DNA of 64,000 nt, taken from NCBI GenBank assembly GCA_015143295.1, contig CM026565.1, positions 13,142,041-13,206,040 on the forward strand, read 5' to 3'. Positions 1,157 to 44,876 of this stretch are shown here, piece by piece. Source of the DNA: Tetracentron sinense (Eukaryota; Streptophyta; Magnoliopsida; Trochodendrales; Trochodendraceae). Under the pieces are notes generated by a model. The model saw only the letters and a program-made list of their open reading frames with translations. It did no database searches and was not told the DNA's origin. The first letter of the stretch is position 1. Each line of letters begins with the position of its first letter. The position numbers and the translations under genes were made by a program.

Positions 1157-1276
1157 CTAATGGTAACCCTCAACTGGAGGTTCCTCAAAAGGCTCCTCGA
1201 CGTACTCCTCCTCCACCCAAGGGCTCGGAGCACAGATATCAAATGGAGCAGCTGCTCCGCCATCACCTGCCGACAT
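1157..1276 (-). CDS. short acidic LTR-encoded frame (39 codons)
   Basis: This open frame runs from ATG at 1276 to TAG at 1157 on the minus strand and encodes 39 residues. The N-terminus is MSAGDGGAAAPFD, the middle is SPWVEEEYVEEPFEEPP, and the protein ends in GYH. It is strongly acidic, with no signal peptide or membrane segment. The same frame, length and core are found in the LTRs at 19406-19525, 24788-24907 and 39324-39443. It lies between the LTR minisatellite and the LTR terminus. The ATG-TCG-GCAG-GT context also resembles a 3' splice acceptor, so this could instead be the start of an exon. I know of no function for it. Confidence 0.4.
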   Translation of the reverse strand: MSAGDGGAAAPFDICAPSPWVEEEYVEEPFEEPPVEGYH

Positions 1277-1590
1277 AAGAAGTACGGCTGAGCATGGAAT
1301 ACTCAGTGGGTACTAAATACTAACCAATAGTCATAGCATACAGATAGCATATATAAAGCAGGAGACAATTCATGCATATAAAACAGGAAAAATTCATATC
1401 AGGACAATAAAGTAAAGGAGTATATAATCATGCTTGAATTCATAAAAGCCGGTAAAACCCTTGAAAATACCGTGCACTTGACTTGACTGAAAATACCATT
1501 TCCTTGCTTGGAAGCTTGTCACGTTTGTCTTATCCTATCGTATCATGCGTGTCATGCCATGTCATGCTTGCTTGGAAAGTAAACTACTTG

Positions 1591-1810
1591 CGAGGGAAGG
1601 GAGACCCTTCATCCTAAATGCCCATGCTTGTCATGCCATGTCATGCTTGCTTGGAAAAGTAAACTACTTGTGAGGGAAGGGAGACCCTTCTTCCTAAATG
1701 CTCATGTCATGTCCTTTCACTTGTGAGATGTTCTTGTGAGATGTACTTGCGAGGGAAGGGAGGCCCTTCTTATGTTAAGTATGCACTTGCGAGGGAAGGG
1801 AGACCCTTCT
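1591..1810 (-). repeat. GAAGGG-AGA-CCCTTC hairpin minisatellite in LTR
   Basis: Four spaced copies of a unit built around GAAGGGAGACCCTTC, a perfect 6-bp stem with a 3-nt loop (variant loop AGG). They lie at about 1591-1610, 1671-1690, 1751-1770 and 1790-1810. Equivalent tracts are at 19861-19990, 24216-24450 and 29590-29730. Confidence 0.75.
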
Positions 1811-2320
1811 TATGAAAATGCATGATTGTCTTGTCCTTGCCAAAAGCGAGGTAAAACATATCGTACGATATGCCCCACCTCTAAATCCCATTCTTGAAAA
1901 CCTCGGTAAATCATGTCATGTATGCGTGCTCGTGAGGTCGTGTGCATACTTACATTTGGAATTAAATATGGCATTTGAGTAATTCATAACACATAACATC
2001 AATGATTTGGGCAATTTAATATTGATATCATTTAGGGAAAGCGAACACTCACACTATCATAACCCTAGCAATTTCCATAAACCTTAAACATGCATTTTCT
2101 TAATTTATCATTCATTTTATTCACCTTGGCATTTCATCAAACATGGTACATTCATTATTCATTAACCCTACAACATGCTTTTCTAGGTGGGTTATACTCA
2201 CATCACACTTGTATGTTTATTATTAGTACTATGCCCTTCCCCATTCATTCATTTCATCATCCACACGGCATCCATTCGCCAACATCCCTCTCCATTTACC
2301 ATACATACCACCCATCTCAT

Positions 2321-2343
2321 AATATATATATATATATATATAT
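2321..2343. repeat. (TA)n microsatellite in LTR
   Basis: Run of alternating A and T in the middle of the LTR. A shorter version lies at the corresponding place in the solo LTR (about 23680-23693). Confidence 0.85.
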
Positions 2344-2725
2344 GAAGGAAAACAAGAAGAAATAAGGGAAGGAGAGGCTATAACTAGGAGGGTAGTAAAA
2401 AGTACCGACCTTGAAGAGATGAGGAAGGAACCCCTCTTCCAAACGACCGTGAGTTGCTGCCCTAGCTTGGAACACGAGCTCCACCCGAGCTTGAGCCGAG
2501 ATCTTGAAGGAAAACGTGCTTGAGGATAATCTAGGGTCTCAAACCCTTTGATTTCCCTTCCAAAAATCAAACCCTAGGTTAGGGATCGCCTTCTTCTCCC
2601 TTCCTTAGCTCTCAATCTTCTAAGTATTGCAAATAAGCCCTAAAGGCTCGGGCAAGACTCTTAAGGTAAGAGTAAACCACTCAAAAGACTAAAACACCCT
2701 TCTAAATTTTCTGCAAAAACGCGAG

Positions 2726-2912
2726 TACCGAGCGATCGGTGTTAATGACCGATCGATCGGTTGCCTACCGATCGATCGGTGTTTATGACCGATCGACCGG
2801 TCAAAAACTCACTCTCTGGAAAATTTCCCCATACAAACTTTCTGACCGCGCGATAGCTACCGATCGATCGGTTATGGACCGATCGATCGCTGACTGGACC
2901 GAGCGATCGGTT
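2726..2912 (-). promoter_or_regulatory. U3 cluster of ACCGATCGATCGGT palindromes
   Basis: Seven copies of the 14-bp palindrome ACCGATCGATCGGT or near variants (ACCGAGCGATCGGT, ACCGATCGACCGGT) in two groups (4 + 3), separated by an A/T-rich spacer of about 55 bp. Each unit carries up to three CpG sites. Equivalent clusters occur in the other LTRs that keep this end, in both LTR families. Placement in U3 suggests a protein-binding or methylation-sensitive control region; this is inference. Confidence 0.5.
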
Positions 2913-3121
2913 CTCTGTATGTCTGGACTGTTTTGACCATATCTTTTGACTCGCTCGTCGGATTTCGACGATTCAACTTGCGTTGGGTTCGTACTTCGAA
3001 AACGAACATTTCTGACGTTTCGGAATTTCCAATTTATTCCTTATTTATTAATTGCATTACTTTAAAGGAAAAATGGCTACGAAGGGTCATGCATAAATGT
3101 GAAAAGGTCCGGGGCTCTACA

Positions 3122-10930: not shown

Positions 10931-11203
10931 TGTCGCGCCCCAAAATACCCCTTAGGAGTTGAGGGATACTTTAGGTGTGACTATACTTAACCTGACAAAC
11001 CATTCTGTAACGAACAAGGTACAACATGCTCTAATGGAAATATAATACAGAGTGCGGAAGCTAAAATATGGCAGGAATACAATCAACTTTTTCTTTTCTT
11101 CTATAAACTTGACAAGTATTCCAAGTTTATACAAAATATGACATGTAAAGGTGGACATTCCCACCTATCAAAATACAAAAGACAGAACACAACTCTATTT
11201 CGC

Positions 11204-11353
11204 TCAATAGTCACCCCCGTGGGGCCAATGGTCTAAGTCTCTCGCCTCAGCCTGAGGCTCAACTACCGAATCCTCGTATGGTTCTTCCTCGCCGTAGTCC
11301 TCCTCAACCCAAGGATCCGGGGCAAAAATGTCGAAAGGGACTCGTGTACCTGC
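11204..11353 (-). other. LTR acidic open frame, family B variant
   Basis: Frame ending in TGA at 11204-11206 on the minus strand. It encodes PFDIFAPDPWVEEDYGEEEP, clearly alignable with PFDVYAPSPWVEEEYVEEP of family A at the same place in the LTR. The GCA-GGT preceding the aligned start is kept, but the aligned ATG seen in other copies is not. Codon differences in the PWVEE core are largely third-position. Confidence 0.4.
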
Positions 11354-17428: not shown

Positions 17429-18738
17429 TTAAAAGAATAACTCTAAACGCGTACCTTGCACTACATCATCAGATGCAAGTGCATCACCCTCTGTCAAGGA
17501 AAAAACTCGTCCCTGGTTCGCTTGGCGAGGCGGAGGTGTAGACCGGATAGTCTGGGATGACGCTTGGTATGATCCTGCTGGGCGTGCTGGGGGCCTAATC
17601 CCCTGAGGCTGGCTTGGTAAATGCCGACTGGGGCAATCCCTGATCACATGGCCCTGGCGACCACAATGAAAACATCCACCCGATGCCCTTCGGTAATCTC
17701 CTGCCGGGTGCCTTCGGCCGCACGAAGTGCAGACCTCATGTGTATAGGTCGGATGGGCTGCAGGTAGAACATACCTCACCGTCTGAGGTGCAACTGGCCG
17801 TGGAGCTGGAAAAGCCTGAGGCATGTACGACCGTGGAACTGGAGGCACATAAGATGGCCTCATCGGTGGTGCTGGCCACGTGTACTGATAAGGGTCGGTA
17901 CGAGCCTGCCTCTCTGGAGGTGCTGAGCTACTGGCTTGGCCTCTCGCCAACTCCCTCTTTCTCCATAATGATATCCTTGAGCCCTTGCTCAAATCTCCTC
18001 GCCTTCCTTGCCTCAGTAGCAACCATGTGAGGCGCAAATCTAGCGAGTTCCGAGAACTTAGCCTCATAAGCGGCCACGGTCATTGAACCTTGTTCTAGGT
18101 CAATGAACTCTCTTTCTTTCTTTTACCGTGCTCCAACAGGAAAGTACTTCTTATAAAAAGTATCCTTGAACTCCTCCCAAGTCCAAGGTTGACCTTTTTT
18201 TTTTTTTTTTTTTTGTTTTTCTGTTTTTCTTTAAAAAGGAAAGCTGGGGTTAGGCAGACCCCGACCAGAATAAATTAAAAACAAAGAGATTACACTCTTA
18301 TGAATCTACAACCCCGAGCTTCATCCTGAATTAGCGCATGGTCAAATCTTGTGTCCTCAAGGCGGACAACCACCAGTGATGTGCCTCCCCCCCCTCTAGC
18401 ATGAAAACTGCCCATGCTACTCTATCCTCCTCTATGGGCGACAGGACCGCAAAGATCTTCTCCATCATCCACGCCTCCGCAGCAAGAGGGTCCACATTCC
18501 CATGGAATGATGGAGGCCTCAATCTCCTGAATGCCTCAACCCCAGCTGTACGATGTACTAGAGCTGTAGGCGGTGGAGTAGGTGCCGCTGATGATGGTAT
18601 AGTTTGCCGAGCCGCCAGGATAGCGAGAGTCTCAGCAATAGAGCCTAAGACCTGAGAGAGGTCCGGCAGCTCATCCTCATCTTTAGAAGAAGATGAAGCT
18701 CTGGTGTGTGGTCCACGACCCCATGTGCCCCACCTCAT
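17429..18738 (-). pseudogene. gag of internal region 1
   Basis: Begins at the aligned ATG (18738) with MRWGTWGRGPHTRASSSS. The capsid core VFMLEGGEAHHWWLSAL follows. After a nested LINE tail (18195-18335) come the Pro-rich linker and the zinc knuckle CFHCGRQGHVIRDC at about 17630-17672. It closely resembles gag of internal region 2. The region is broken. Confidence 0.8.
18195..18335 (-). mobile_element. LINE 3' tail (about 140 bp) nested in gag
   Basis: Begins with a long T tract (minus-strand poly-A, 18195-18214). It then holds, on the minus strand, GGTCGGGGTCTGCCTAACCC and AGCTTTCC, nearly identical to the 3' end of the LINE at 12271-14331. The uninterrupted gag sequence at 28015-28040 gives the empty site. 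I see no clear target duplication. Confidence 0.75.
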
Positions 18739-19094
18739 GACTAAAGCCCTGAGAACAATAGCACCACATGTGTCTCACTTGAAACCACAATTTATCACAG
18801 TTCCATTTCACAACAATTCAATTTGTTTTAGTTGTATAATACTAATATACAGCGCATCACAGCCATCGGTGTATTTATAATATTATACCTTGGTGTTCTA
18901 GCGTTCCTAAGACTCGTACTTGGTGGAAATAACCATTTTGACTAAGACTAAAGTTTAGTCTTACACTTGGATCATAACTCGCTTCCGACTTACTTCCTTC
19001 CTAACTTGTTTCCTGACATATGCTCTTGTCAAGCCGTGGTATTAGATTCTAAGTGACCCTAGAGACCTAAAGCCTAAGCTCTGATACCACTTCT
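18739..19094 (-). other. leader and primer binding site of internal region 1
   Basis: Non-coding leader. The minus strand at 19078-19089 reads TGGTATCAGAGC (initiator tRNA-Met type), five bases from the LTR edge at 19095. Confidence 0.8.
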
Positions 19095-21304
19095 TGTCGC
19101 GACCCGAGACCCACTCTAGGAGTTAGAGTGAATCTTGGACGACTAATCATGGCTTGCATGACTTACTTGACAAACCAACCTACAAAACCCACAGAGCATA
19201 TACAATAGAGGATAAAAATAGCGGAAACATACTCTAACATAGTACAGTGGAAGTCTACCAAACCTCCATGTATATACATACGCACATGTTCCAACTTTAT
19301 ACAAAAAGGTACACAAAAGAAAGAAAGTGCGGACAGGCCCGCCAAAATACATGGATACATCTCTCTCAACTCACCCACAGCTATCTACTCTAAATCTACC
19401 ACCACCTAATAATAACCCTCGACCGGAGGTTCCTCCACATGTTCCTCGACGTACTCCTCCTCCACCCAAGGGCTCGGAGCACAGACATCGAATGGAGCAG
19501 CCGCTCCGCTATCACCTACGGACATAAGAAGTACGACTGAGTATGGAATACTCAGCGGGTACCAAATACTAACCAACAGTCATAGCATACAGATAGCGAT
19601 ACATAGAGCAGGAAACAATTCACACATATAAAGCAGGAATAAATAATATCATAATTGCATTCATAAAAGCTGATAAAACCCTTGAACGTGCACTTGACTT
19701 GACTTAAAGTACCATTTTCGTGCTTGAAAACTCGTCTTGTCTATCTTGCTTGATTCTTGTATGTCGTGTCATGTCATGCATGTCATGCGTGCTTGCTTGT
19801 GATCATGTAACTTGTGAGATACACTTGTAAGATGTACTTGTGAGATGCGCTTGTGAGATGCCTTGAGAGGGAAGGGAGACCCTTCTTTATGCAATGCACT
19901 TGAGAGGGAAGAGAGACCCTTCTTCATGATATGTATGTACTTGCGAGGGAAGGGAGGCCCTTCTTTATGCTATGCAATTGTGAGTGAGGGGAGACTCCTC
20001 GTGGAATGTTTGTTCTTGTTTTCTAGTGAAAAGCGGGGTAAAACATATCGTAGGATATGTCCCACCTCTAATCATGTTCTTGAAAATACGATAAATCATG
20101 TCATGCATGCCGTGCTCATGGAAGTCGTGTGCATACTTACAATTGAATTTAAATATGACATGTTTGGGGATTTCACAATACATTGCACATCATCATTTAA
20201 ACAAGTAACAAATTAAACAATTAAGGGAAAGCGCGAAAACACACTATCATAACCCAAACAATTTCCATAAACTTTAAGCATGCATTTTCTTAATTTATTA
20301 TTCTTTTATTCACCTTGGCATTCCATCAAACATGGTATGTTCATTATTTGTTAACCCTACAACATGCTTTTCTAGGTGGGTTATAATTCCATCATACATG
20401 TTTGTTCATTATGGATACAATGCCCTCCCCATGTCAATTATCACAACATAACCATTGGCATCCAATCGCCCATTCCATCTCCATTCACAACATCCACACG
20501 TCCCAACTCATAGCACAAGCATAGATGAAGGAAAACAAAGAAACATGGACGAAAAAAGGAACTATGACTAGGAGGGTAGCAAGAAGTACCGACCTTGATC
20601 AATGAGGAAGAAAACTCCTCCAAAAACGTTTGTGAGGTGCTACCCTAGCTTGGAACACGAGCTCCACGAGTTCTTGAGCTTGAATCTTGAAGAAAATGGC
20701 TTGAGGTTGATCTAAGTCTTCACCCCTTTCGATTTCTTCCCCAAATGGAAACCCTCGGTTAGAAATCGCCAGCTCCTCTTTCTCTAACTCTCAAATGTCT
20801 CTAAGTAATGTAGATGAGCCCTAAAGGCTCGGGCAACCTTTAAGAGTAAAAGAGTGAAACGCCAAATGACCGAAACACCCTTACTAAAATTTCTGCAAAA
20901 CACGATACATTGATCGATCGGTGGTCGATACCGAGCAATCGGTTGCCTACCAATCGATCGGTTTCATAACCGAGCGGTCGGTTAAAAATCTACTCTCTGG
21001 AAAATTTCGTCATACAAAAATCTTGACCAGTCGATAGCTACCGATCGATCGGTTTTGGACCGATCGATCGCTCCATGGACCGAGCAATCGGTGATCTGCA
21101 GGTCCAAACCGTTTTGGCCATATCTCTTGACTCGTTCGTCGGATTTTGACGATTCAACTTGCGTTGGGTTTGTACTTCGAAAAGGAACATTTTTGACGTT
21201 TTGGAATTTTCAATTTCTTCCTTATTTATTAATTGTACTACATTAAAGGCAAATTGGCTACGAAAGGGCCATGCATTAAACATGAAAAAGTCCGGGGCTC
21301 TACA
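19095..21304 (-). repeat. shared LTR, Tekay-like family A (2210 bp)
   Basis: Canonical TG...CA ends on the minus strand (TGTAGAGCC... to ...GTCGCGACA). It has a primer site on its low-coordinate side and a polypurine tract (minus-strand GTAAGGGGGGAAGA) on its high-coordinate side, so it belongs to both internal regions. A palindrome cluster lies at 20911-21093. It differs from the LTR at 28794-31004 by about ten substitutions in the first 240 bp (roughly 4 %, counted by eye). Confidence 0.9.
19406..19525 (-). CDS. short acidic LTR-encoded frame (39 codons)
   Basis: ATG at 19525 to TAG at 19406 on the minus strand. It has N-terminus MSVGDSGAAAPFDV, core SPWVEEEYVEEHVEEPPVE and end GYY. Length and placement equal those in the LTRs at 1157-1276 and 24788-24907. 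It is acidic with no hydrophobic segment. A short inverted repeat (GCTGAG...CTCAAC-type) precedes it. Confidence 0.4.
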   Translation of the reverse strand: MSVGDSGAAAPFDVCAPSPWVEEEYVEEHVEEPPVEGYY

Positions 21305-22897: not shown

Positions 22898-23109
22898 CCA
22901 GATGTAGAGCCCCGAACTTTTGACATTATGCATGACCCTTCGTAGCCATTTTTCCTTTAAAGTAATGCAATTAATAAATAAGGAAGAAATTGGAAATTCC
23001 GAAACATCAGAAATGTTCGTTTTCGAAGTACGAACCCAACGCAAGTTGAATCGTCAAAATCGGACGAACGAGTCAAAAGTTATGGCCAAAACAGTTCAGA
23101 CATACAGAG

Positions 23110-23297
23110 AACCGATCGCTCGGTCCAGTCAGCGATCGATCGGTCCATAACCGATCGATCGGTAGCTATCGCGCGGTCAGAAAGTTTGTATGGGGAAATT
23201 TTCCAGAGAGTGAGTTTTTGACCGGTCGATCGGTCATAAACACCGATCGCTCGGTAGGCAACCGATCGATCGGTCATAACCACCGATCGCTCGGTCC
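23110..23297 (+). promoter_or_regulatory. palindrome cluster in solo LTR U3
   Basis: Seven ACCGATCGATCGGT-type sites in a 3 + 4 arrangement in plus-strand order, matching 2726-2912 in reverse. The sites are well preserved, in keeping with a young LTR. Confidence 0.5.
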
Positions 23298-23357
23298 TCG
23301 CGTTTTACAGAATTTTCACTAAGGGCATTTTCGGCATTCGGGTGTTATACCCTTTCT

Positions 23358-23365
23358 TATATAGG
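23358..23365 (+). promoter_or_regulatory. TATA-like box of solo LTR
   Basis: TATATAGG lies about 60 bp downstream of the palindrome cluster, followed by CCCGAGCCTTTAGGGCTC, a block conserved in all these LTRs. The position suits the U3/R boundary. Confidence 0.4.
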
Positions 23366-24215
23366 ATTGCCCGAGCCTTTAGGGCTCATTCTCAACCCTT
23401 AGAAGATTTGGGAGATTAGGAGAGAGGAGAAGGGGTTCCTAAATCTAGGGTTTCCATTTTGAAGAGGAATCAAAGGGGTTTGAGACCCTAGATCATCCTC
23501 AAGCACGTTTTCCTTCAAGATCTCGGCTCAAGCTCGGGTGGAGCTCGTGTTCCAAGCTAGGGCAGCAACTCACGGTCGTTTGGAGGAGGGGTTTCTTCCT
23601 CATCTCTTCAAGGTCGGTGCTTTTTACTACCCTCCTAGTTATAGCCTCTCCTTTCCTTATTTCTTCTTGTTTTCCTTCATATATATATATATTATGAGAT
23701 GGGTGGTATGTATGGTAAATGGAGATGGATGTTGGCGAATGGATGCCGTGTGAATGATGAAATGAATGAATGGGGAAGGGCATTGTACTAATAATAAACA
23801 TACAAGTGTGATGTGAGTATAACCCACCTAGAAAAGCATGTTGTAGGGTTAATAAATAATGAACACACCATGTTTGATGAAATGCCAAGATGAATGAAAT
23901 GAATAAGAAATTAAGAAAATTCATGTTTAAGGTTTATGGAAATTTGCTAGAGTTACGATAGTGTGCCTTCTTGTTTTCCCTAAATTACACAAATATTGAA
24001 TTGCTCAATTGATTGATGTCTATGGATTGTTATGTATTGTTAACTCTCCAAATGTCACATTTAAATTTAAATGCAAGTATGTACACGCTTCCACGAGCAC
24101 GCATGCATGACATGATTTACCGAGGTTTTCAAGAATGAGATTTAGAGGTGGGGCATATCCTACGATATGTTTTACCTCGCTTTTGGCAAGGACAAGACAA
24201 TCGTGCATTTTCATA

Positions 24216-24456
24216 AGAAGGGTCTCCCTTCCCTCACAAGTGCATACATAACATAAGAAGGGCCTCCCTTCCCTCGCAAGTACATCTCACAAGGACATCT
24301 CACAAGTGAAAGGACATGACATGAGCATTTAGGAAGAAGGGTCTCCCTTCCCTCACAAGTAGTTTACTTTTCCAAGCATGATACAAGCATGACATGGCAC
24401 GGCATGACAAGCATGGGCATTTAGGATGAAGGGTCTCCCTTCCCTCACAAGTAGTT
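24216..24456 (+). repeat. GAAGGG hairpin minisatellite in solo LTR
   Basis: Four copies of the GAAGGGTCTCCCTTC-type unit (stem of 6 bp, 3-nt loop), the same unit as at 1591-1810 read on the other strand. Confidence 0.75.
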
Positions 24457-24787
24457 TACTTTCCAAGCAAGCATGACATGGCATGACATGCATGATACGA
24501 TAAGATAAGACAAACATGACAAGTTTTCAAGCAAGGAAATGGTGTTTTCAGTCAAGTCAAGTGCACGGTGTTTTCAAGGGTTTTATCGGCTTTTATGAAT
24601 TCAAGCATGATTATATACTCCTTTACTTTATTGTCATGATATGAATTATTCCTGCTTTATATGCTTGAATTGTTTCCTGCTTTATATATGTGAAATGCTT
24701 CCTGCTTCCTATACTGCTATGGTTTTGCTATGACTATTGGTTAGTATTTAGTACCCGCTGAGTATTCCATGCTCAGCCGTACTTCTT

Positions 24788-24907
24788 ATGTCGGCAGGTT
24801 CTGAGGGAGCTGCTGCTCCATTTGATGTCTATGCTCCTAGCCCTTGGGTGGAGGAGGAGTACGTCGAGGAACCTTTGGAGGAACCTCCCGTAGAGGGTTA
24901 TCAGTAG
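24788..24907 (+). CDS. short acidic LTR-encoded frame (39 codons)
   Basis: ATG at 24788 to TAG at 24905-24907, 39 residues. It has N-terminus MSAGSEGAAAPFDVYAP, core SPWVEEEYVEEPLEEPPVE and end GYQ. A perfect 6-bp inverted repeat (GCTGAG...CTCAGC, 24757-24777) lies 10 bp upstream. GGCAG|GT inside the first codons resembles a 3' splice site, so the frame could be read from an ATG or as part of a spliced exon. Function unknown. Confidence 0.45.
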   Translation: MSAGSEGAAAPFDVYAPSPWVEEEYVEEPLEEPPVEGYQ

Positions 24908-25210
24908 GAGGTGTTAGATTCTAAGTGGTTTAGCTGTGGGTGAGCATGAGTGATTATATCCATGTATTTTGGCGGGCATGTCCGCACTTTCTTTGTTTTG
25001 TTTTCTTTTGTATTAAACTTGGACCATGTGTATATATACTTAGAGGTTTGTTAGACTTCCGTTGTGTTTTATAGTTATGCTTCCGCTGTTATCCTCTATT
25101 GTATATGTTCTGTGAGTTTTGCAGGTTGGTTCGTCAAGCAAGTCATGTAAGAAATGATTAAGTCGTCCAAGATTCACTCTAACTCCTAGGGTGGGTTTTG
25201 GGTCGCGACA

Positions 25211-28437: not shown

Positions 28438-28793
28438 GACTAAAGTCCTGAGAACAATAGCACCACATGTGTCTCACTTGAAACCACAATTTATCACAGT
28501 TCCATTTCACAATAATTCAATTTGTATTAGTTGTATAATACTAATATATATCGCATCACAGCCATCGGTGTATTTACAATATTATACCTCGGTGTTCTAG
28601 CGTTCCTAAGACTCGTACTTGGTGGAAACAAACATTTTGACTAAGACTAAAGTTTAGTCTTACACTTGGATTATGACTCGCTTCCAACTTACTTCCTTCC
28701 TAACTAGTTTCCTGACATATGCTCTTGTCAAGCCGTGGTATTAGATTCTAAGTGACCCAAGAGACCTAAAGCGTAAGCTCTGATACCACTTCT
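28438..28793 (-). other. leader and primer binding site of internal region 2
   Basis: Non-coding leader. The minus strand at 28777-28788 reads TGGTATCAGAGC, five bases from the LTR edge at 28794. Confidence 0.8.
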
Positions 28794-31004
28794 TGTCGCG
28801 ACCCGAGACCCACCCTAGGAGTTAGAGTGAATCTTGGACGACTAATCATGACTTGCATGACTTACTTGACAAACCAACCTGCAAAACCCACAGAGCATAT
28901 ACAATAGAGGATAAAAACAGCGGAAACATACTCTAACATGGTACAGCGGAAGGCTACCAAACCTCTATGTATATACATACGCACATGTTCCAAATTTATA
29001 CAAAAAGATACACAAAAGAAAGTGCGGACAGGCCCGCCAAAATACATGGATACATCTCTCTCAACTCACCCACAGCTATCCACTTAGAATCTACCACCAC
29101 CTAATAATAACCCTCGACCGGAGGTTCCTCGACGTACTCCTCCTCCACCCAAGGGCTCAGAGCACAGACATCGAATGGAGCAGCCGCTCCGCTATCACCT
29201 GCCGACATAAGGAGTACGGTTGAGTATGGAATACTCAGCGGGTACCAAATACTAACCAACAGTCATAGCATAAAGATAGTGATACATAGAGCAGGAAACA
29301 ATTCACACATATAAAGCAGGAATAATTCATATCATAACAATAAAGTAAAGCAGTATATAATCATGCTTGCATTCATAAAAACTGATAAAACCCTTGAAAA
29401 CACCGTGCACTTGACTTGACTTGACTTGACTTAAAGTACCATTTTCGTGCTTGAAAACTCGTCTTGTCTATCTTGCTTGATTCTTGTATGTCAGGTCATG
29501 TCATGTATGCCATGCGTGCTTGCTTGTAATCATGTAACTTGTGAGATACACTTGTAAGATGTACTTGTGAGATGCGCTTGTGAGATGCCTTGAGAGGGAA
29601 GGGAGACCCTTCTTTATGCAATGCACTTAAGAGGGAAGGGAGACCCTTCTTCATGATATGTATGTACTTGCGAGGGAAGGGAGGCCCTTCTTTATGCTAT
29701 GCACTTGTGAGTGAGGGGAGACCCCTCATGGAATGTTTGTTCTTGTTTTCTAGTTAAAAGTGGGGTAAAACATATCGTAGGATATGTCCCACCTCTAATC
29801 ATGTTCTTGAAAATACGATAAATCATGTCATGCATGCCGTGCTCATGGAAGTCGTGTGCATACTTGCAATTGAATTTAAATATGACATGTTTGGGGATTT
29901 CAATATGCATTGCAAATCATCATTTAAACAAGTAACAAATTAAACAATATAGGGAAAGAGCGAAAATACACTATCATAACCCAAACAATTTCCATAAACT
30001 TTAAGCATGCATTTTCTTGATTTATTATTCATTTTATTCAGCTTGGCATTCTATCAAACATGGTATGTTCATTATTTGTTAACCCTACAACATGCTTTTC
30101 TAGATGGGTTATAATTCTATCATACATGTTTGTTCATTATATTACAACACAACCATTGGCATCCAATCGCCCATTCCATCTCTATTCACAACATTCACAC
30201 ATCCCAATTCATAGCACAAGCATAGATGAAGGAAAACAAAGAAACATGGAGGAAAAGAGGAACTATGACTAGGAGGGTAGCAAGATGTACCGACCTTGAT
30301 CAATGAGGAAGAAAACTCCTCCAAAAACCTTCATGAGGCTCTGCCCTAGCTTGGAACACGAGCTCCATGATTTCTTGAGCTTGAATCTTGAAGAAAATGG
30401 CTTGAGGTTGATCTAAGTCTTCACCCCTTTTGATTTCTTCCCCAAATTGAAACCCTAGGTTAGAAATCTCCCTCTCCTCTTTCTCTAACTCTCAAATGTC
30501 TCTAGGTGTTGTAAATGAGCCCTAAAGGCTCGGGCAACCCTTAAGAGTAAAGAGTGAAATGCCAAAAGACCGAAACACCCTTACTGAAATTTCTGCAAAA
30601 CACGATACACCGATCGATCGGTGGTCGATACCGAGCGATCGACCGCCTACCGATCAATCGGTTTCATAACCGAGCAATCGGTTAAAAATCTACTCTCTGG
30701 AAAATTTCCCAATACAAAAATCTTGACCAGTCAATAGCTACCGATCGATCGGTTTTGGACCGATCGATCGCTCCATGGACCGAGCGATCGGTGGTCTACA
30801 GGTCCAAACTGTTTTGGCCATATCTTTTGACTCGTTCGTCGGATTTTGACGATTCAACTTGCGTTGGGTTCATCCTTTGAAAAGTAGCAATTTTTACGTT
30901 TCAGAATTTTCAATTTCTTTCTTATTTATTAATTGTACTACATTAAAGGCACATTGGCTACGAAAGGGCCATGCATTAAACATGAAAAAGTCCGGGGCTC
31001 TACA
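28794..31004 (-). repeat. 5' LTR, Tekay-like family A (2211 bp)
   Basis: TG...CA ends as in 19095-21304. The outer end (31004) abuts satellite block S2. It contains the palindrome cluster at 30609-30794, three to four minisatellite units at about 29590-29730 and the acidic frame at 29101-29208. Confidence 0.9.
29101..29208 (-). CDS. short acidic LTR-encoded frame (35 codons, in-frame shorter)
   Basis: ATG at 29208 to TAG at 29101 on the minus strand. It has N-terminus MSAGDSGAAAPFDV, core SPWVEEEYVEEPPVE and end GYY. Relative to the 39-codon versions it is exactly four codons shorter, so the length difference preserves the frame. Confidence 0.4.
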   Translation of the reverse strand: MSAGDSGAAAPFDVCALSPWVEEEYVEEPPVEGYY

Positions 31005-37302: not shown

Positions 37303-37516
37303 TGTAGCACCCCGAACATTTCTATACTTAATGGGTACCACTTTCGTAGCCAATTGGCCTTCCACGTAGTCTAATTAATAAATATGGGTGAAATTTGAAA
37401 TTCTGACATGTCAGAAATGTTAATTTTCAAAAGATGAATCTAACGCAAGTTAAATCGTCGAAAACCGACGAACGAGTCAAAAGATATGGCCAAAATAGTT
37501 GGGACCTGCAGAGAAC

Positions 37517-37742
37517 CGATCGCTCGGTCAAACGTAGAGATCGATCGGTTCACAACCGATCGCTCGGTCATTATTAGTGATCGATCAGTGCAAAACCGAT
37601 CGATCGAAGGCTATTGACTGGTTAACTTTTTTGTATGGGGAAATTTTCCAGAGAGTATGTTTTTTACCGATCGATTGGACAAGAACACCGATCGCTCGGT
37701 AGGCAACCGATCGATCGGTCATAACCGCCGATCGCTCGGTCT
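37517..37742 (+). promoter_or_regulatory. palindrome cluster in family B LTR U3
   Basis: Eight ACCGATCGATCGGT-type sites (several as ACCGATCGCTCGGT), split by the conserved spacer containing GGGGAAATTTTCCAGAGAGT. Position and layout match family A although the rest of the LTR has diverged. Confidence 0.5.
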
Positions 37743-38697
37743 ATCGCGTTTTGCAGAAATTTCAGTAAGGGCTTTTTCGTCTTTTGGGCGTTAAACCCTT
37801 ACCAATAAAGGCTTGCTCGAGCCTTTAGGGCTTCACTCACTATACTTAGAAGGTTTTGAGAGATAGAAAGAGAGGAGAAGGTTAGGTTTTCCTTTTGGGA
37901 AGAAATCAAGAGTTTGGATTGCCAAGATTTGTTCCAAGGCTTGGATTCTTCAAATCCAAGGTTCAACTCGGGAGGAGCATGTTCTCAAGCTAAAGCGGCG
38001 TTCTCCAAGGTATTTTCAAGAGGCTTTCTTCCTCCACTCAAGCTTTCTTCATGCAAGGGTCCTCCTTCTTCCAAGTTGGAGCTTCAATCAAGGTTTACAC
38101 CCAAGATCAAGCCTTGATTCAAGGTTAGTACACTCTACTAACTTCCCTAGCAATAACCTAGGTTTTCACTCTTGATATTATGCTTTCTTTCCTTATAAAA
38201 CGTATTACCTTCACTAAATATAAACAAGATAAGAAAAAGGTTCGAATGTCTGGATGGGATGTGGATTGTGGCGATTGGATGCCGTTGGATGTGGATGTGA
38301 TGTGTGAAATAGAAAATGGTGGATGGGCATTCTATAAATAATGAACATACCAAGATGATTGATGGAAAATATGCGCTAAAAAGGGTAAAGAAAAACTACT
38401 AAAAATGTTGCACACCGGATGTTTGTAATATGCCTAAACCAATAATAAATTAATTTAATAAAGGAAATGGATGTAAGCCCTATGTAATTGTTCTTGTAAA
38501 TGATGACTCGACCAAATGCTATGTTGATCACCTAAATGCTTACATGTTATACTATGAATTGAAATGTGATGCGATATTCCTCTTGTTACATGTGTTCCCA
38601 TGATTGTCACTATTGGCACGCACGCGAGCACGCTTGTGTGCATGAACCGAGTTTTCAATAGCATATGCATTAATAAATCAACAAGAAAACATTACAT

Positions 38698-39046
38698 ATC
38701 AAGGAGGTTGGTAGCCCAGGGGTATTCGGGTACTAGCCTTTAGCTCACAAGAAAACTGAAAATACTACCTGTCAAGGAGGTTGGTAGCCCAGGGATATTC
38801 GGGTACTAGCCTCTGGCTCAGAAAAAAACTAAATAAGAACACTAAAAGCTACTATATGTCAAGGAGGTTGGTAGCCCAAGGATATTCGGGTACTACCCTC
38901 GGGCTCACAAGAAAATCATATGTCAAGGAGGTTGGCAGCCCAGAGAGGTTCTGGTGCTAGCCTCTAGCTCATAAGTGAAGAAAAATATTACATGTCAAGG
39001 AGGTTGGCAGCCCAGGGATGTTCGGGTGCTAGCCTCTGGCTCACAA
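38698..39046 (+). repeat. family B LTR minisatellite (five copies)
   Basis: Five copies of a 65-90-bp unit starting TCAAGGAGGTTGGTAGCCCA and ending CTAGCCTCTGGCTCAC. Units begin near 38698, 38777, 38858, 38922 and 38993. Confidence 0.85.
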
Positions 39047-39323
39047 GTATACAAGATGATGAAAGGACACGCATGTATGATTTTCACAAGCAAGACCGAG
39101 ACATGAAACGAGTTTTCAAGCATGAGCTTTATCTACGTTTTCGCATTCATGCAGGCAACTCATGATAATGATATTGTTCTTGTTCAATACCATTTATCTA
39201 ATGATGCTACTATTGATTTAAATCGATACATTGTATTTTGTTCATTCTTGTTATGCTTCTATTATTTCTATGGTTTGCTAATAGTTTGTATTCGCTGAGT
39301 ATTTCATGTTCAGCCGTACTTTC

Positions 39324-39443
39324 ATGTCGGTAGGTACTGAGGAAGCCCTCGACCCTGAGCCTTGGGTCGAGAAAGAGTATGTAGAGGAGAGGAACCCTTC
39401 TATCCCGTCACAGTCTCAGGCAGATAGAGACCTCAACGTGTGA
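39324..39443 (+). CDS. short acidic LTR-encoded frame, family B (39 codons)
   Basis: ATG at 39324 to TGA at 39441-39443, 39 residues. It has N-terminus MSVGTEEALDPE, core PWVEKEYVEERNPS and a polar C-terminal part SQSQADRDLNV. Length, start context (ATGTCGG-TAGGT) and core match family A, but the flanks of the core have diverged. A G-T-tolerant stem (GCTGAG...TTCAGC-type) precedes it. Confidence 0.45.
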   Translation: MSVGTEEALDPEPWVEKEYVEERNPSIPSQSQADRDLNV

Positions 39444-39753
39444 TCGTACCTCGACTACTGTTAAGGGGAGAGTACGAGAGGGTCCTTTGGTGTATTTTGA
39501 CATTTTGATAGGTGGGTCTGTCCACCTTAGAATTTGATATGTATTGTGTATATGTTTCACTTGGAATACTATTTTGGAACTTTAGAAGAAAAGAAAAAGT
39601 TAGTTTACACTCCTGCATATATGTTTAACTTCCGCGCTATGATTATTATCCTTATTGTATTGTGTTAGCCACGTTACTTCAGGATGGTTTGGCAGGTACG
39701 TATAGTCACACCTAAATTTCCCTTAACTCCTAGGGGTATTTTGGGGCGCGACA

Positions 39754-40082
39754 GAGGTGGTATCCGAGCCCTAGGCATTAGAGTCCCTAGGGTCACTTGA
39801 TATCATGATTGAATAAGGCAATAGGTGTTATGAACGAGTTGTATTCCAAGTATAGACTAACAACAGTTAGTCTTAGTCAAAATAGGTTGAACTTCAACTA
39901 AACTTAGAGTCCTACGCTAGGAACACGGATTGTATGTTATGATATTGTATGGTATACCATACGTGCATTATTTGTGCTTAGTGAATATGCTAGATGAATA
40001 TGTATTGAGTGAAGTGTGAAACTATTTCTAAAATGCGTATCCAAGTTAGATTCATGTTGTATTGTCGTTTTCAGGAGAAATC
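39754..40082 (+). other. leader with primer binding site
   Basis: TGGTATCCGAGC at 39758-39769, then about 310 bp of non-coding leader before the gag ATG at 40083. Confidence 0.75.
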
Positions 40083-41183
40083 ATGAGACGCAATACCCGG
40101 GGTCCCGGATACAACACTCGGGGAAATGAAAGTGATGCTCCACCAGGTGATGATTAACCCGATTTTGCCCAAGCCTTTGCTTCAATAGCCGAGACTTTGG
40201 CTATGCTAGCGGCATGGCAACCGGCTACTACTACGAATTCCGCACTTATACCCGCTCCTCCTAATCGAGCTCAAGCTGGAATAGAGGTTTTTCAGAGGAT
40301 GAGACCTCCAGCATTTTATGGGAGTATTGACCCGCTTATTGCCGAAGGATGGATTCGGCAATTAGAAAAGATATCTTCGGTGTTAGCGCCTACTGAGGCG
40401 GAAAGGGTTACTTGGGCCACCTTCATGCTTGAAGGTGAGGCCGATCATTGGTGGAAGTCCGCACTCAGGACCCGGGAGTTGGCCCGACAGGGTCAAGACT
40501 GGAGTTGGGTAGAATTCAAGCACGTCTTCAACAAGAAATACTTCCCAATAAGCATGAAAGAGAAGATGGAAGTTGATTTCATTACCTTGGAGCAAGATAA
40601 TATGTCCTTAGCGGCTTATGAAGCGAAGTTCTTGGAGTTATCTCGATTTGCTCCATATATGATAGCTACCGAGGCCATGAAAGCTCGAAAATTTGAGAGG
40701 GGTCTAAAGGCCTACCTCAAGGATCGAGTCTCAATGTTTAGACATGAGACATATTCAGAAGTTGTGGATAAGACACTTTTGGCCGAATAAAACTCCGAGG
40801 AGTTCTTCAAAAGAAGAGGAATGGAGAAAGGACAGTCAAGCAGTTCAGGGGAGAAGAGAGCAAGGACTAGCTCGTATCAGTCCGTAGGGCCGGCTCAGTC
40901 ACAGAGGATGTATTCGACACCACAGGCTCCCCGTCCTTATACTCCACCGACTTTTCGCCTGGCTTTTTCTCATGCTCCTCGCCCCGCAGTTACTCAGGCT
41001 ACGGGATATGCTCGTCCCAACTATTTGTACGATATCTGCACCCTTTGTGGAAGGAGGCATCCAGCGGGGGAATGCCGGAGGGCTACCGGAAGTTGCTATC
41101 ATTGTGGTGACCAAGGCCACATTGTTCGAGATTGTCCTCGATGTCAATTGCCAGCTCAATCTCAAGGTACGCAAGAATTCTAG
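40083..41183 (+). pseudogene. gag of family B element
   Basis: N-terminus MRRNTRGPGYNTRGNESD, then the capsid core (EVFQRMRPPAFYGSIDPL, ATFMLEGEADHWWKSALR, WSWVEFKHVFNKKYFP). A Ser/Pro-rich linker and the zinc knuckle CYHCGDQGHIVRDC (about 41094-41135) follow. It resembles family A gag throughout. The region is broken. Confidence 0.85.
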
Positions 41184-41275: not shown

Positions 41276-41692
41276 TTGATGTTTGTGTTTAATCGCACAG
41301 GCGCCTTATTAGTGAACGAGTGTCTCGCCCGATTGTTGATTGACACAGGATCCACTCACTCCTTTGTTTCACCCAGTTTCGCAAAGGAATTTTCGACTGA
41401 GGCTACTCCGTTAGAGCGGGAGTTGACCATTGCAACTCCGCTTGGCAAGTCGGTTGATATGGATAAAATTTATAGAGATTGTGTGGTTCAAGTGGGGGAG
41501 AATGAACTATTAGCCGATCTCATTGTCCTAGATTTCCAAGACTTGGATTTCGATGTCATCCTAGGAACGGATTGGTTATCAAACCACAACGGGCATGTTG
41601 CATGTTTTGAAAAGATGGTGAACTTCAAGCTGGAAGGGGGTAAGCCTTTTCACTTTCGAGGATTGAGAGAAAAGGACATGCTCGCCTCGTAG
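41276..41692 (+). pseudogene. aspartic protease of family B element
   Basis: LARLLIDTGSTHSFVSPSFA contains the DTGS catalytic motif. DVILGTDWLSNHNG is the C-terminal signature of gypsy proteases. The stretch between them carries VDMDKIYRDCVVQVG, as in internal region 2. Confidence 0.85.
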
Positions 41693-41694
41693 TT

Positions 41695-43020
41695 TTGAGC
41701 ATAGCAAACCCAGAGGCACCAAACTCCTCGGCCATTCCAGTCATGAGTGAGTTCTTAGATGTGTTTCGGGAAGAATTTCCCGGATTGCCTCCTGATAGAG
41801 AGATCGAGTTTGCTATAGAGCTTACTCTAGGCACAGCTCCGATTTCAATGGCACCGTATAGAATGGCCCCAATAGAGCTTGAAGAGTTGAAGAAACAAAT
41901 TGAGGAGTTACAACAACTTGGTTTCATCCAACCAAGTGTCTCGCCATGGGGAGCTCCGGTCCTCTTTGTAAAGAAGAAGGACGGGTCGATGAGGATGTGC
42001 ATAGACTACCGTCAGCTGAACAAGGTCACTATCAAAAATCGTTATCCCTTGCATCGGATAGACGATTTATTTAACCAACTGCAGGGAGCAAAATTTTTTT
42101 CCAAAATTGATCTTAGGTCGGGGTATCATCAGATAAAGATTAAGGTGGAAGATGTTCCGAAAACGGCTTTTAGGACTCGATATGGGCACTACGAGTTCCT
42201 TGTCATGCCTTTTGGGCTTACGAATGCACCGGCGGCGTTCATGGATCTGATGAACCGGGTGTTCCGATCGTACTTGGATCGATGTGTGATTGTGTTCATA
42301 GATAACATTTTGGTGTATTCCCAGACACGGCAAGATCATGCACGAGACCTCTGCCTTGCTCTGGAGATGTTGAGAGAGCATAGGCTATATGTCAAATTGA
42401 GTAAGTGCGAATTCTGGTTAGAGAAGGTAGAATTTCTCGGCCACGAAGTGTCAACTGAGGGCATTTCAGTAGACCCGGCAAAGATAGAGGCAGTTATGAG
42501 TTGGGAGAGGCCCAAGAACGTCACTGAGATACGAAGTTTCCTTGGATTAGCGGGCGACTACCGGAGATTTGTGGAGGGATTTTCCAGTTTGGCTGCACCT
42601 CTCACTTACCTGATAAGGAAGAATGCTTAGTTTAGTTGGAGTGACAAATGCGAAGTGAATTTTCAAGAGTTGAAGAAACGCCTCACCACGGCCCCCGTCC
42701 TTACTGTGCCATCCGGGCATGGTGGTTAGAAGGCGTATAGCGATGTTTCGCACATCGGACTTGGGTGTGTCCTCATGTAGCATAAGAAAGTCATTATGCA
42801 TCAAGGCAACTGAAAGAGCATGAAAAGAATTACCCCAAGGCAACTGAAGGAGCATGAAAAGAATTACCCCACTCACGACTTGGATCTTGCTGCGGTCGTG
42901 TTTGCACTCAAGATTTGGCGCCAATACCTTTACGGGTAGAGTTCTATGTGTTCACAGATCACAAGAGTCTCAAGTACCTCTTTTCCCAAAAGGAACAAAA
43001 TTTGCGGCAACAGTATTAGA
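41695..43020 (+). pseudogene. reverse transcriptase and RNase H of family B element
   Basis: RT motifs in order: [73 protein letters not shown], the catalytic-loop region [14 protein letters not shown], and [18 protein letters not shown]. RNase H signals follow toward 43020. The region is broken. Confidence 0.85.
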
Positions 43021-44019
43021 TGGAATTCTTGAAAGATTACGAGTGCACCATCCAATATCACCCAAGAAAAGCGAACGTAGTGGCTGATGCTTTGAGTAGA
43101 AGACCTCCGGATCTATTGGCTCACATGTTGGTGCGGGAATGGAAACTGTGGCAAGATTTGGCAAATCTGGACATCAGTGCGAATGATTCTGTCAACAGTC
43201 CTGTCTTGACCAATGTCACGGTTCGGCCGTACATTATAGATTTGATCCAAGAGTATCAAGCCACGGATGCTGACTTGTTGGCTTTCCGAGATAAGGAAGT
43301 TGCCAAGGGTAGTAAGGACTTCTCTCTCACTAGCCAGGGCGCTATTACATTCAAGGGAAGACTTTGTGTCCCAGCCAAAGCAGATCTTCGGAGAGAGATT
43401 ATGGATGAAGCTCACCGATCCAAGTATACAGTGCATCCCGGGGGTACAAAGATGTATTGGAACCTCAAGAGGCACTTTTGGTAGCAAAACATGAAGAGGG
43501 AGGTTGCGGAGTACGTGGCACGGTGTTTGGTGTACCAACAGGTGAAAGCAAAGGACTTGATACCGATAGGACTTTTACAGTCTCTCCCTATTCCCGAGTG
43601 GAAATGGGAACACATCTCCATGGACGTCATTGTGGGATTGCCAAAGACAGTTCGAAAGACCGATGCTATATGGGTTGTTGTTGACAGACTCACGAAGTCC
43701 GCCCATTTCTTACCGTACCGAACTACTTTCAATTCAAATCAGTTGGCTGCATTGTATATCAAAGAGATAGTCCGGTTACACGGGGTGCCAGTGAGCATTG
43801 TGTCGGATCGGGACCCGAGATTCACGTCCAGGTTTTGGAAAAGTTTTCAAGGGGCAATGGGTTCCCGGTTAGACTTTAGCACAGCTTTCCATCCACAGAC
43901 GGATGGGCAAACCGAGCGAGTGAATCAGATTATCGAAGACATGTTCCGTGCATGTATCCTAGACTTTAAGGGAAGTTGGGAAGATCACCTACCTTTGGTA
44001 GAATTCGCCTACAACAATA
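43020..44019 (+). pseudogene. integrase of family B element
   Basis: Starts with DYECTIQYHPRKANVVADAL (RNase H/integrase linker typical of gypsy), then the zinc region HRSKYTVHPGGTKMYWNL. The catalytic core carries WEHISMDVIVGLPKT, DAIWVVVDRLTKSAHFLPY, VSIVSDRDPRFTSRFWKSF and AFHPQTDGQTERVNQIIEDM. It ends at the start of the partial LTR. The region is broken. Confidence 0.85.
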
Positions 44020-44876
44020 GTTCTTGTAAATGATGACTTGACCAAATGCTATGTTGATCACCTAAATGCTTACATGTTATACTATGAATTGAAATGTGAT
44101 GCGATATTCCTCTTGTTACACGTGTTCTCATGATTGTCACTATTGGCACGCACGCGAGCACGTATGAACCGAGTTTTCAAGAGCATAAGCATTAATAAAA
44201 CAAAAGGAAAACATTGCATGTCAAGGAGGTTGGTAGCCCAGGGGTATTTGGGTACTAGCCTCTGGCTCACACGAAAACTGAAAATATTACATATCAAGGA
44301 GGTTGGTAACCCAAGGATATTCTGGTACTAGCCTCTGGCTCACAAGAAAACTAAACAAGAACACTTAAAGCTACTATATGTCAAGGAGGTTGGTAGCCCA
44401 GGGATATTTGGGTACTAGCCTCTAGCTCACAAGAATACAAGATGATGAAAGGACACGCATGCACGATTTTCACAAGCAAGACCGAGACATGAAACGAGTT
44501 TTTTAGCATGAGCTTTATCTGCGTTTTCGCATTCATGCAGGCATGTCATGACAATGATATTGTTTTTGTTCTATACCATTTATCTTATGATGCTCCTATT
44601 GCTTTAAATCGATACCTTATATTTTTTTCATTCTTGTCATGCTTCTATTATTGCTATGGTTTGCTAGTAGTTTGTACTCGCTGAGTATTCCATGTTCAGC
44701 TGTACTTTCATGTCGGCAGGTACTGAGGAAGCCCTCGACCCTGAGCCTTGGGTCGAGGAAGAGTACATAGAGGAGAGGGACTCTTCTATCCCGTCACAGT
44801 CTCAGGCGGATAGAGACTCGACGTGTGGCCGTACCTCGACTACTGTTGAGGGGAGAGTATGAGAGGGTCCTTTGGT
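44020..44876 (+). repeat. partial 3' LTR of family B element
   Basis: Aligns with the middle of the 5' LTR from about 38486 to 39488. It holds three minisatellite units (44219-44429) and the acidic frame (44710-44862). Neither LTR terminus is present; satellite follows at 44877. Confidence 0.85.
44710..44862 (+). other. LTR acidic open frame in partial family B LTR
   Basis: Frame starting MSAGTEEALDPE with core PWVEEEYIEERDSS, aligned with 39324-39443. It remains open over the whole aligned length. Confidence 0.35.

What the first reader, a model, noticed from the sequence alone, without database searches (positions are those of the whole stretch)
1157..44862. A short acidic peptide frame conserved inside the LTRs of two gypsy families
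Seven LTR copies keep one reading frame at the same place: 1157-1276, 11204-11353, 19406-19525, 24788-24907, 29101-29208, 39324-39443 and 44710-44862. Five start at an aligned ATG; four of these have exactly 39 codons and one is shorter by a whole four codons. The core PWVEEEYVEE survives between families with mainly synonymous changes (Val GTG/GTT/GTC, Tyr TAC/TAT), while surrounding sequence has diverged. LTRs are normally non-coding, so a selected micropeptide, or an exon read by spliced transcripts, is unexpected. I do not know of a described counterpart.
Basis: seen in the sequence. Interest (0 to 1): 0.75.

Follow-up and report, generated by a model that had tools for sequence, protein, structure and literature searches.

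The report
Selected micropeptide frame inside plant LTRs
Long terminal repeats of several related plant jumping genes, usually thought to hold only control signals, carry a short stretch that has evolved like the code for a small acidic protein fragment, which suggests the repeat itself encodes an unrecognised peptide.

Summary
The seven frames exist and are the only strong copies in the window. Six, not five, start at an aligned ATG; the 11204 copy has none. A codon model on a nucleotide alignment gives dN/dS 0.38 for the frame (nominal p 0.0004) and 0.19 for its core PFDxxAPxPWVEEEYVEE (p 0.00009); codons 1-9 look neutral. Nominal p-values are somewhat optimistic: 4 of 24 flank tests pass 5%. 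Indels in the shared part of the frame are multiples of three; in the a1-c1 flanks 3 of 13 are. A 13-bp hairpin directly 5' of the ATG is more conserved than the frame. Hosts are Ty3/gypsy elements with chromovirus-like features in a plant satellite array. Best reading: an acidic micropeptide encoded wholly inside the LTR and kept by selection between families. Expression, and the transcription start relative to the frame, are unresolved. Extra ORFs in plant LTR elements, and coding that runs into the 3' LTR in CRM group A, are known; my searches of the held papers showed no free-standing LTR peptide. No relatives outside the window were obtained.

The parts
1157..1276 (-). peptide frame, copy a1, 39 codons + stop
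24788..24907 (+). peptide frame, copy a2 (in a solo LTR), 39 codons + stop
19406..19525 (-). peptide frame, copy b1, 39 codons + stop
29101..29208 (-). peptide frame, copy b2, 35 codons + stop (12-nt in-frame gap relative to b1)
39324..39443 (+). peptide frame, copy c1, 39 codons + stop
44710..44862 (+). peptide frame, copy c2, 50 codons + stop; LTR homology to c1 ends about 44878, satellite DNA follows
11204..11353 (-). peptide frame, copy d; no in-frame ATG, upstream block missing
853..3121 (-). LTR a1 (TGTAGAGCCCCG...GTGACA), satellite DNA on its 5' side
22903..25210 (+). LTR a2, solo LTR flanked by CCAGA on both sides
19095..21304 (-). LTR b1, followed by PBS and leader
28794..31004 (-). 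LTR b2, followed by PBS and leader; 92% identical to b1 over LTR plus leader
37303..39753 (+). LTR c1 (2451 nt)
10931..11353 (-). 3' part of LTR d, from LTR end to the frame
1282..1313 (-). conserved hairpin sequence 5' of the ATG, a1 (minimum-energy prediction prefers a competing fold in this copy)
24751..24782 (+). conserved hairpin, a2 (z -2.38 for the 61-nt stretch)
19531..19562 (-). conserved hairpin, b1 (z -3.07)
29214..29245 (-). hairpin site, b2; not folded as such by prediction (z +0.42)
39288..39319 (+). conserved hairpin, c1 (z -1.23)
44674..44705 (+). conserved hairpin, c2 (z -0.86)
837..848 (-). primer-binding site TGGTATCAGAGC (tRNA-iMet type, recalled) after LTR a1
19078..19089 (-). 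primer-binding site after LTR b1
28777..28788 (-). primer-binding site after LTR b2
39758..39769 (+). primer-binding site (1 mismatch) after LTR c1
40072..40085 (+). acceptor-like CAG|GAGAAATC 8 nt before the gag ATG in c1; a1, b1 and b2 have TTCTCAG|G 10 nt before the ATG at 492, 18738 and 28437 (-)
   Evidence: splicing is inference, no RNA data; c1's site was seen but not scored

Best explanation
The frame is a real short coding sequence lying wholly in the 3' third of the LTR of Ty3/gypsy elements that look like Tekay-type chromoviruses. It encodes an acidic micropeptide (35-50 residues, net charge -7 to -13, probably without a stable fold) whose working part is PFDxxAPxPWVEE[ED]YVEE. Selection kept this core between families. 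I think it is translated from RNA that starts in the LTR, with the conserved hairpin and ATG block just before it controlling start-codon choice or splicing, and that the product acts in trans as a short docking motif (tryptophan and tyrosine in an acidic stretch) on a host or Gag partner. Shown: the frame, its conservation pattern, its position in the LTR, the hairpin sequence. Inferred: transcription, translation, action in trans. Not determined: whether transcription starts upstream of the frame (then it is a 5'-leader ORF) or downstream of it (then it is a U3 gene read at the 3' end of the RNA or by splicing).
For: Codon model on a nucleotide alignment, not protein-guided: omega 0.38, 2dlnL 12.4 over 39 codons; core codons 10-28 omega 0.19, 2dlnL 15.4; omega below 1 in 9 of 9 further, overlapping subsets and nominal p<0.05 in 7 of the 9. 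Of 30 frame-by-segment tests the frame has the strongest signal below 1; the antisense frame that shares its third positions is close (11.25) but holds stops in 7 of 7 copies. Indels in the interval aligned to a1's frame are 12, 18, 6 and 3 nt (9 in one pair), all multiples of three, against 3 of 13 in the a1-c1 flanks. Pairwise a1-d: dS 1.74, dN 0.25 (protein-guided alignment). The frame is intact in a solo LTR. No Pfam match up to E 1 for 7 of 7 copies and no PDB match up to E 10. AlphaFold2: mean pLDDT 71.9, pTM 0.16, DSSP gave no assignment.
Against: Only four lineages, and no copies from outside the window. Without copy d the whole-frame p is 0.03. Codons 1-9 look neutral (omega 0.90) and codons 29-39 are not significant. 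The stop is not shared between families, and a 1-nt indel separates the ends of the two c frames. Of 24 flank tests, 4 pass the nominal 5% level (about 1 expected), one of them below 1 (-240 to -121, frame 0: 2dlnL 7.4, stops in only 2 of 7 copies), so the background is not silent and nominal p-values are too small. A model with neutral terminal branches fits slightly worse than one omega for all (lnL -527.8 against -526.6), so selection relaxed after insertion is not shown. The 60 nt upstream are more conserved than the frame without coding. L002, the only other Tekay-like LTR end at hand, shows no such peptide. No RNA, ribosome or peptide data.
Confidence: 0.6

Rival explanations
1. Regulatory upstream ORF: the frame sits in the 5' leader of the element's RNA and its translation (or a nascent-peptide effect) tunes ribosome access to gag; the peptide itself has no job elsewhere. 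(Shares the coding claim with the best explanation.)
For: It lies before the PBS and gag, with a hairpin ending 4-5 nt before the ATG. A TATATA box lies about 80-105 nt upstream in family a. The sequence downstream holds many further ATGs (by eye).
Against: Arrest-type uORFs usually conserve the C-terminus and the stop (recalled); here the middle is conserved and the end is not. A TATA-like GTATAAA lies downstream of the frame in a1, b1, b2 and d (altered in a2 and c1), which could put the start site after the frame.
Confidence: 0.2
2. Coding exon of a larger spliced protein: the core is joined by splicing to a start in another exon (acceptor at CAG|GT at codons 3-4), as in accessory genes of complex retroviruses. 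(Shares the coding claim with the best explanation.)
For: The site ranks 2nd to 4th of 148-192 acceptor-like sites in 5 of the 5 copies scored. The 100 nt before the ATG are 40-50% T in those copies. Codons 1-9 are neutral while the core is constrained. Copy d aligns from about this point on. Acceptor-like sites also stand just before the gag ATG in a1, b1, b2 and c1.
Against: The matrix was recalled and simple. I saw no conserved in-frame donor after the core (by eye). The exon-like region at LTR ~487-712 has no ATG in a1, a2 and b1 to start from. Splicing there would discard the conserved ATG.
Confidence: 0.17
3. DNA or RNA element only: conservation comes from promoter, processing or packaging sequence and the open frame is a by-product.
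For: The hairpin block upstream is the most conserved part; 76 of 78 cells pair.
Against: No pair changes on both sides and no excess over shuffles. In the frame itself changes concentrate at third positions and indels of the shared part keep phase.
Confidence: 0.12
4. Chance: G-rich, stop-poor sequence that stayed open, with a selection signal from a small, uneven alignment.
For: Few lineages. The four a and b copies would stay open by chance in 6% of simulated runs. 4 of 24 flank tests pass the nominal 5% level.
Against: 0.8% (open) and 0.025% (open with ATG) for six copies in a rough simulation; codon-model nominal p 0.0004 and 0.00009.
Confidence: 0.08

Closest known systems
Additional or extra ORFs (aORF/eORF) of plant LTR retrotransposons, incl. 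the 5'aORF of sunflower and grass Tekay elements (PMC11728184: section 2.5 read, other passages seen; PMC7264820: abstract, introduction and one passage; PMC6317226: passages)
   Same: Element-carried ORF outside gag-pol with no known domain, kept in most copies of a family (500 of 523 in sunflower Tekay group 2); that protein is largely disordered and at the 5' side.
   Different: Those are described in the internal region; PMC6317226 counted ORFs of at least 250 codons and the sunflower one has 402 aa. This one has 35-50 codons and lies inside the LTR, hence also in solo LTRs.
[quoted passage not shown]
   Same: Protein coding inside a plant chromovirus LTR.
   Different: There it is the end of the polyprotein. 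Here the frame is about 1.8-2.0 kb into the LTR, has its own ATG and is not continuous with pol.
U3-encoded accessory genes of retroviruses (MMTV sag, HIV nef; recalled)
   Same: A small protein encoded in the LTR, possibly read from the 3' copy by splicing.
   Different: No sequence relation shown; far smaller; expression unknown.
BARE spliced subgenomic Gag RNA in barley (PMC3735527, abstract and outline seen)
   Same: A plant LTR element with a separate spliced RNA for Gag, as the acceptor-like site before gag hints here.
   Different: A different element family (copia type, recalled); splicing there is demonstrated, here only inferred from sequence.
Conserved-peptide uORFs of plant genes (recalled)
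   Same: A short upstream frame with amino-acid-level selection.
   Different: Position relative to the transcription start is unknown here; the conserved part is the middle, not the C-terminus.

Membership tests
Ty3/gypsy chromovirus, Tekay clade (host elements) | gypsy-type gag and pol domains | tested here: met
   Retrotrans_gag, RVP_2, RVT_1, RT_RNaseH, Integrase_H2C2 and SH3_Tf2-1 above cut-off in separate pieces of several elements, rve below cut-off; no single complete element was tested
Ty3/gypsy chromovirus, Tekay clade (host elements) | tRNA-iMet-type PBS next to the 5' LTR | tested here: met
   TGGTATCAGAGC exact at 3 sites and with one mismatch at 1, 4-5 nt after LTR ends; identity of the tRNA is recalled
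Ty3/gypsy chromovirus, Tekay clade (host elements) | chromodomain at the integrase C-terminus with EEXTWEXE and (K/R)X(L/T)RX(K/R) (motifs from PMC3350952 passages) | tested here: inconclusive
   Pfam lists no Chromo match up to E 0.01 in 2 of 2 C-terminal pieces scanned. By eye EEATWGVR and EESTCERE with QVLHNK and QVLRNK are imperfect matches
Ty3/gypsy chromovirus, Tekay clade (host elements) | RT placed in the Tekay clade of a tree | not tested
   no reference set of plant RTs at hand
Plant LTR-retrotransposon additional ORF (aORF) | kept in all or most copies of the family | tested here: met
   6 of 6 LTR ends found by pattern in the window have it, plus the truncated c2; genome-wide not testable
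Plant LTR-retrotransposon additional ORF (aORF) | lies in the internal region, outside the LTRs | tested here: not met
   the frame ends about 270-310 nt before the LTR end, inside the LTR, in the 6 copies with an LTR end
CRM group A LTR-encoded polyprotein extension | reading frame continuous from pol into the 3' LTR | tested here: not met
   in the b element pol stops before the LTR, and stops stand in frame upstream of the peptide in the 7 copies shown
Retroviral U3 accessory gene | located in U3 and expressed as subgenomic mRNA | not testable with these tools
   no RNA data; TATA-like motifs exist on both sides of the frame
Conserved-peptide uORF | in the mRNA 5' leader, with peptide-level purifying selection | tested here: inconclusive
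   selection supported for the core; leader position unknown

The most novel reading that the evidence does not exclude
The LTR is a self-contained small gene: its own promoter, an untranslated first exon near LTR position ~490-710, a repeat-filled intron, a hairpin-guarded micropeptide exon and a T-rich 3' end, so that complete elements and even solo LTRs can make a trans-acting acidic peptide that helps the family, a hitherto unrecognised kind of accessory gene in plant retrotransposons.
Probability: 0.15. Interest if true: 0.8.

Novelty: new variant of a known kind. Interest (0 to 1): 0.57.

Why it matters
LTRs make up a large share of many plant genomes and are treated as non-coding. A selected peptide inside them would mean that surveys of long extra ORFs (250 codons or more in PMC6317226) missed a class of element proteins, that solo LTRs may express something, and that LTR dating by substitution counts uses partly constrained sequence. 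The claim is directly testable with existing genomes and ribosome-profiling or peptide data.

Tried and rejected
Neither contaminant matches the frame region: nhmmer with filters off 0 hits, tblastn nothing better than E 0.15. L002 holds an LTR end and leader; L001 was only seen to hold pol, so one of the two is informative.

Chance from a stop-poor composition: judged unlikely on codon-model and indel evidence, with the caveat that 4 of 24 flank tests pass 5%. Antisense gene: some antisense frames are open (84 codons in a1), but the antisense frame with low omega has stops in 7 of 7 copies.

ATG-free first exon at LTR ~487-712: 0 ATG in 226, 226 and 223 nt in a1, a2 and b1, but 2 in b2 and 2 in c1; shuffles of the same segment do as well in 17-33% for the first three and 77-83% for the other two. 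The longest ATG-free stretch exceeds every one of 200 whole-LTR shuffles in a1 (512 against 360) and a2 (504 against 476) but not in b1, b2 or c1. I keep it as a weak hint.

Hairpin as a covarying RNA: 13 pairs, 76 of 78 cells paired, but 0 two-sided changes and no excess over shuffles; slid versions pair in 10-45% of cells. Four of six copies fold into it by minimum energy, a1 and b2 do not; z-scores run from -3.07 to +0.42. Rfam: 2 weak matches, both below gathering, in the 3.2 kb scanned. The long LTR-end fold is more stable than shuffles in a1 (z -2.06) but not in c1 (z -0.12), so no shunt-type structure is claimed; passages of PMC5902531 on shunting named no plant LTR element.

Literature: the strings PWVEEE, WVEEEYVEE and EEEYVEE occur in no held paper. 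Searches for LTR-internal or extra ORFs and for uORFs or spliced RNAs of LTR elements gave no counterpart in the listings and passages that I saw; most listed papers were not opened.

Changed on checking: the confidence of the best explanation went from a planned 0.66 to 0.6, and two rivals up slightly, because recounting the controls and the branch model showed the background less silent and the post-insertion relaxation unproven.

Full report
Setting. The 64-kb window (GC 43%) is plant-like in my judgement: arrays of a ~178-bp satellite interrupted by Ty3/gypsy elements. No genome is held for it, so everything rests on copies inside the window. LTRs run TGTAG(A/C)..CCCCG to ...GCGACA or GTGACA, 2.2-2.45 kb: 853-3121 (-, a1), 22903-25210 (+, a2), 19095-21304 (-, b1), 28794-31004 (-, b2), 37303-39753 (+, c1), plus the 3' part of d from 10931 (-) and a truncated c2 near 44.0-44.9 kb. 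PBS sequences follow a1, b1, b2 and c1. a2 is a solo LTR flanked by CCAGA on both sides. Domains typical of gypsy gag and pol are present in separate pieces. The C-terminal tails resemble the Tekay chromodomain motifs given in PMC3350952 (passages read) only imperfectly, and Pfam lists no chromodomain, so I call the elements Tekay-like chromoviruses without settling the clade.

The observation. All seven frames are there and open, and they are the only matches above the inclusion threshold of a profile made from them. Six start at the aligned ATG. Copy d at 11204 lacks the ATG and the upstream block. Lengths are 39, 39, 39, 35, 39, 50 and 49 codons for a1, a2, b1, b2, c1, c2 and d. All are acidic: net charge -10, -10, -10, -8, -7, -9 and -13 in that order (the calculated pI of 4.05 is the same for all and looks like the program's floor). 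Invariant columns are G7, D13, P19, W20, V21, E22 and Y25 of a1.

Is it coding? I used the MAFFT nucleotide alignment of frame plus flanks, so the codon frame did not guide the alignment, and fitted a codon model on the assumed tree ((a1,a2),(b1,b2),((c1,c2),d)). Frame 0: omega 0.386, 2dlnL 12.3 against omega 1. One search made 30 tests (5 segments of 120 nt, 6 frames each). In the ORF segment the other five frames gave omega 1.17 (0.3), 2.53 (10.0), 0.90 (0.15), 0.40 (11.25; stops in 7 of 7 copies) and 3.50 (18.4); values above 1 are what one expects where the third positions of the true frame fall on first or second positions of another. In the 24 flank tests the largest 2dlnL below omega 1 is 7.4 (-240 to -121, frame 0, stops in 2 of 7 copies) and the largest above 1 is 4.9; 4 of 24 pass the nominal 5% level, where about one is expected, so the nominal p-values are somewhat too small. 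Split by part: codons 10-28 omega 0.19 (2dlnL 15.4, p 0.00009), codons 1-9 omega 0.90, codons 29-39 omega 0.50 (p 0.18). Leaving out d gives p 0.03 for the whole frame and 0.0015 for the core; leaving out c gives 0.0007 and 0.006; a and b alone give 0.012; c and d alone 0.039. Indels in the interval aligned to a1's frame are 12, 18, 6 and 3 nt (9 in one pair); the a1-c1 flanks have 26, 1, 10, 7, 9, 1, 13, 4, 8, 6, 12, 1 and 2. Beyond that interval, near the end of the listed c frames, c1 and c2 differ by a 1-nt indel. Changes within the b pair (1 synonymous, 2 non-synonymous) and the c pair (4.5 and 8.5) are too few to say whether selection stopped after insertion, and a model with neutral terminal branches fits slightly worse than a single omega.

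What else is conserved. The 60 nt before the ATG differ by 27% between a1 and c1, less than the frame (41%) or the farther flanks (38% upstream, 56% downstream). They contain GUAC-(2 nt)-GCUGAGUAU-(3 nt)-AUGCUCAGC-(1 nt)-GUAC, ending 4-5 nt before the ATG: 13 pairs, 76 of 78 cells standard, only one-sided changes. So there is a second, non-coding constraint next to the coding one. Copy d has lost this block and the ATG, and its 5' LTR part does not align; I read it as an old fragment that still shows the core as PFDIFAPDPWVEEDYGEE.

How it might be expressed. TATA-like motifs stand on both sides: TATATA about 80-105 nt upstream in family a, not clearly conserved, and GTATAAA about 70-105 nt downstream of the stop in a1, b1, b2 and d (altered in a2 and c1). 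A third candidate region near LTR position 450-490 precedes a conserved, ATG-poor stretch that ends in AAG|GT(C/T)(A/G)GT, but the ATG poverty is weak statistically. An acceptor-like site stands just before gag: TTGTTCTCAG|G 10 nt before the ATG in a1, b1 and b2, and GTTTTCAG|G 8 nt before it in c1 (c1's was not scored). With a recalled matrix the best donor of b1, b2 and c1 lies 57-72 nt before the LTR end, and good ones lie 60-90 nt before it in a1 and a2. This suggests that gag RNA may be spliced in the leader, as BARE makes a spliced subgenomic Gag RNA (PMC3735527, abstract), but there is no RNA evidence. Depending on the true start site the peptide frame is either a leader ORF or a U3 ORF. 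I cannot decide this.

What it may do. The product is short, acidic, without Pfam or PDB relatives at the limits used; the structure model has pLDDT 72, pTM 0.16 and no DSSP assignment, which may also be a failure of that step. A conserved W-x(4)-Y in an acidic run with flanking prolines is a typical docking-motif composition (general knowledge). I therefore favour a trans-acting peptide that binds a host or Gag partner over a nascent-chain stall, because the middle and not the end is conserved. This step is inference.

Comparison with what is known. Extra ORFs in plant LTR elements are well known but are described in the internal region (PMC7264820 introduction) and were counted from 250 codons up in a large survey (PMC6317226 passage). 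The sunflower Tekay 5'aORF has 402 aa, is predicted nuclear and largely disordered, and shows no amino-acid similarity to the grass ones (PMC11728184, section 2.5 read). CRM group A elements code into the 3' LTR, but as the end of the polyprotein (PMC3059260, one passage). None of these is a free-standing micropeptide inside the LTR. My searches showed no description of one; they cover only the held open-access papers, and most listed papers were not opened.

Verdict. The mechanism is open. It is a new variant of the known additional-ORF theme, with a bolder possibility (an LTR that is itself a small gene) that the evidence does not exclude.

Noticed in passing
1282-1313 (-) and the five homologous sites: A 13-bp hairpin sequence ending 4-5 nt before the frame's ATG is in the most conserved block of the distal LTR between families a, b and c; function unknown.
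   Followed up: partly
492-515 (-), 18738-18761 (-), 28437-28460 (-), 40060-40085 (+): Acceptor-like sites TTCTCAG|G or TTTTCAG|G stand 8-10 nt before the gag ATG in families a, b and c, with good donor-like sites 57-90 nt before the LTR end, hinting at a spliced 5' leader for gag.
   Followed up: partly
LTR positions 1-360 (e.g. 37303-37660 +): The first ~360 nt of the LTR are 70-90% identical even between a/b and c and hold repeated ACCGATCGATCGGT-like palindromes; strongly conserved compared with the middle of the LTR.
   Followed up: no
about 1400-1800 (-) and homologous LTR middles: Repeated GAAGGGTCTCCCTTCCCTCGCAAGTAC-like units in a/b and GGAGGTTGGTAGCC...GGCTCACAAG-like units in c/d fill the fast-evolving LTR middle.
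   Followed up: no
18336-31004 (-): LTR b1 is followed by PBS and leader although it lies where the 3' LTR of the b2-headed copy is expected: an LTR-internal-LTR-internal arrangement, perhaps unequal recombination, with solo LTR a2 nested inside.
   Followed up: no
L001 and L002 (BMWJ01000031.1, NZ_VCHY01000050.1): Two short contigs filed under Streptomyces clavifer and Labilibacter sediminis encode gypsy pol 66-72% identical to the window's RT, apparently plant contamination of bacterial assemblies.
   Followed up: partly
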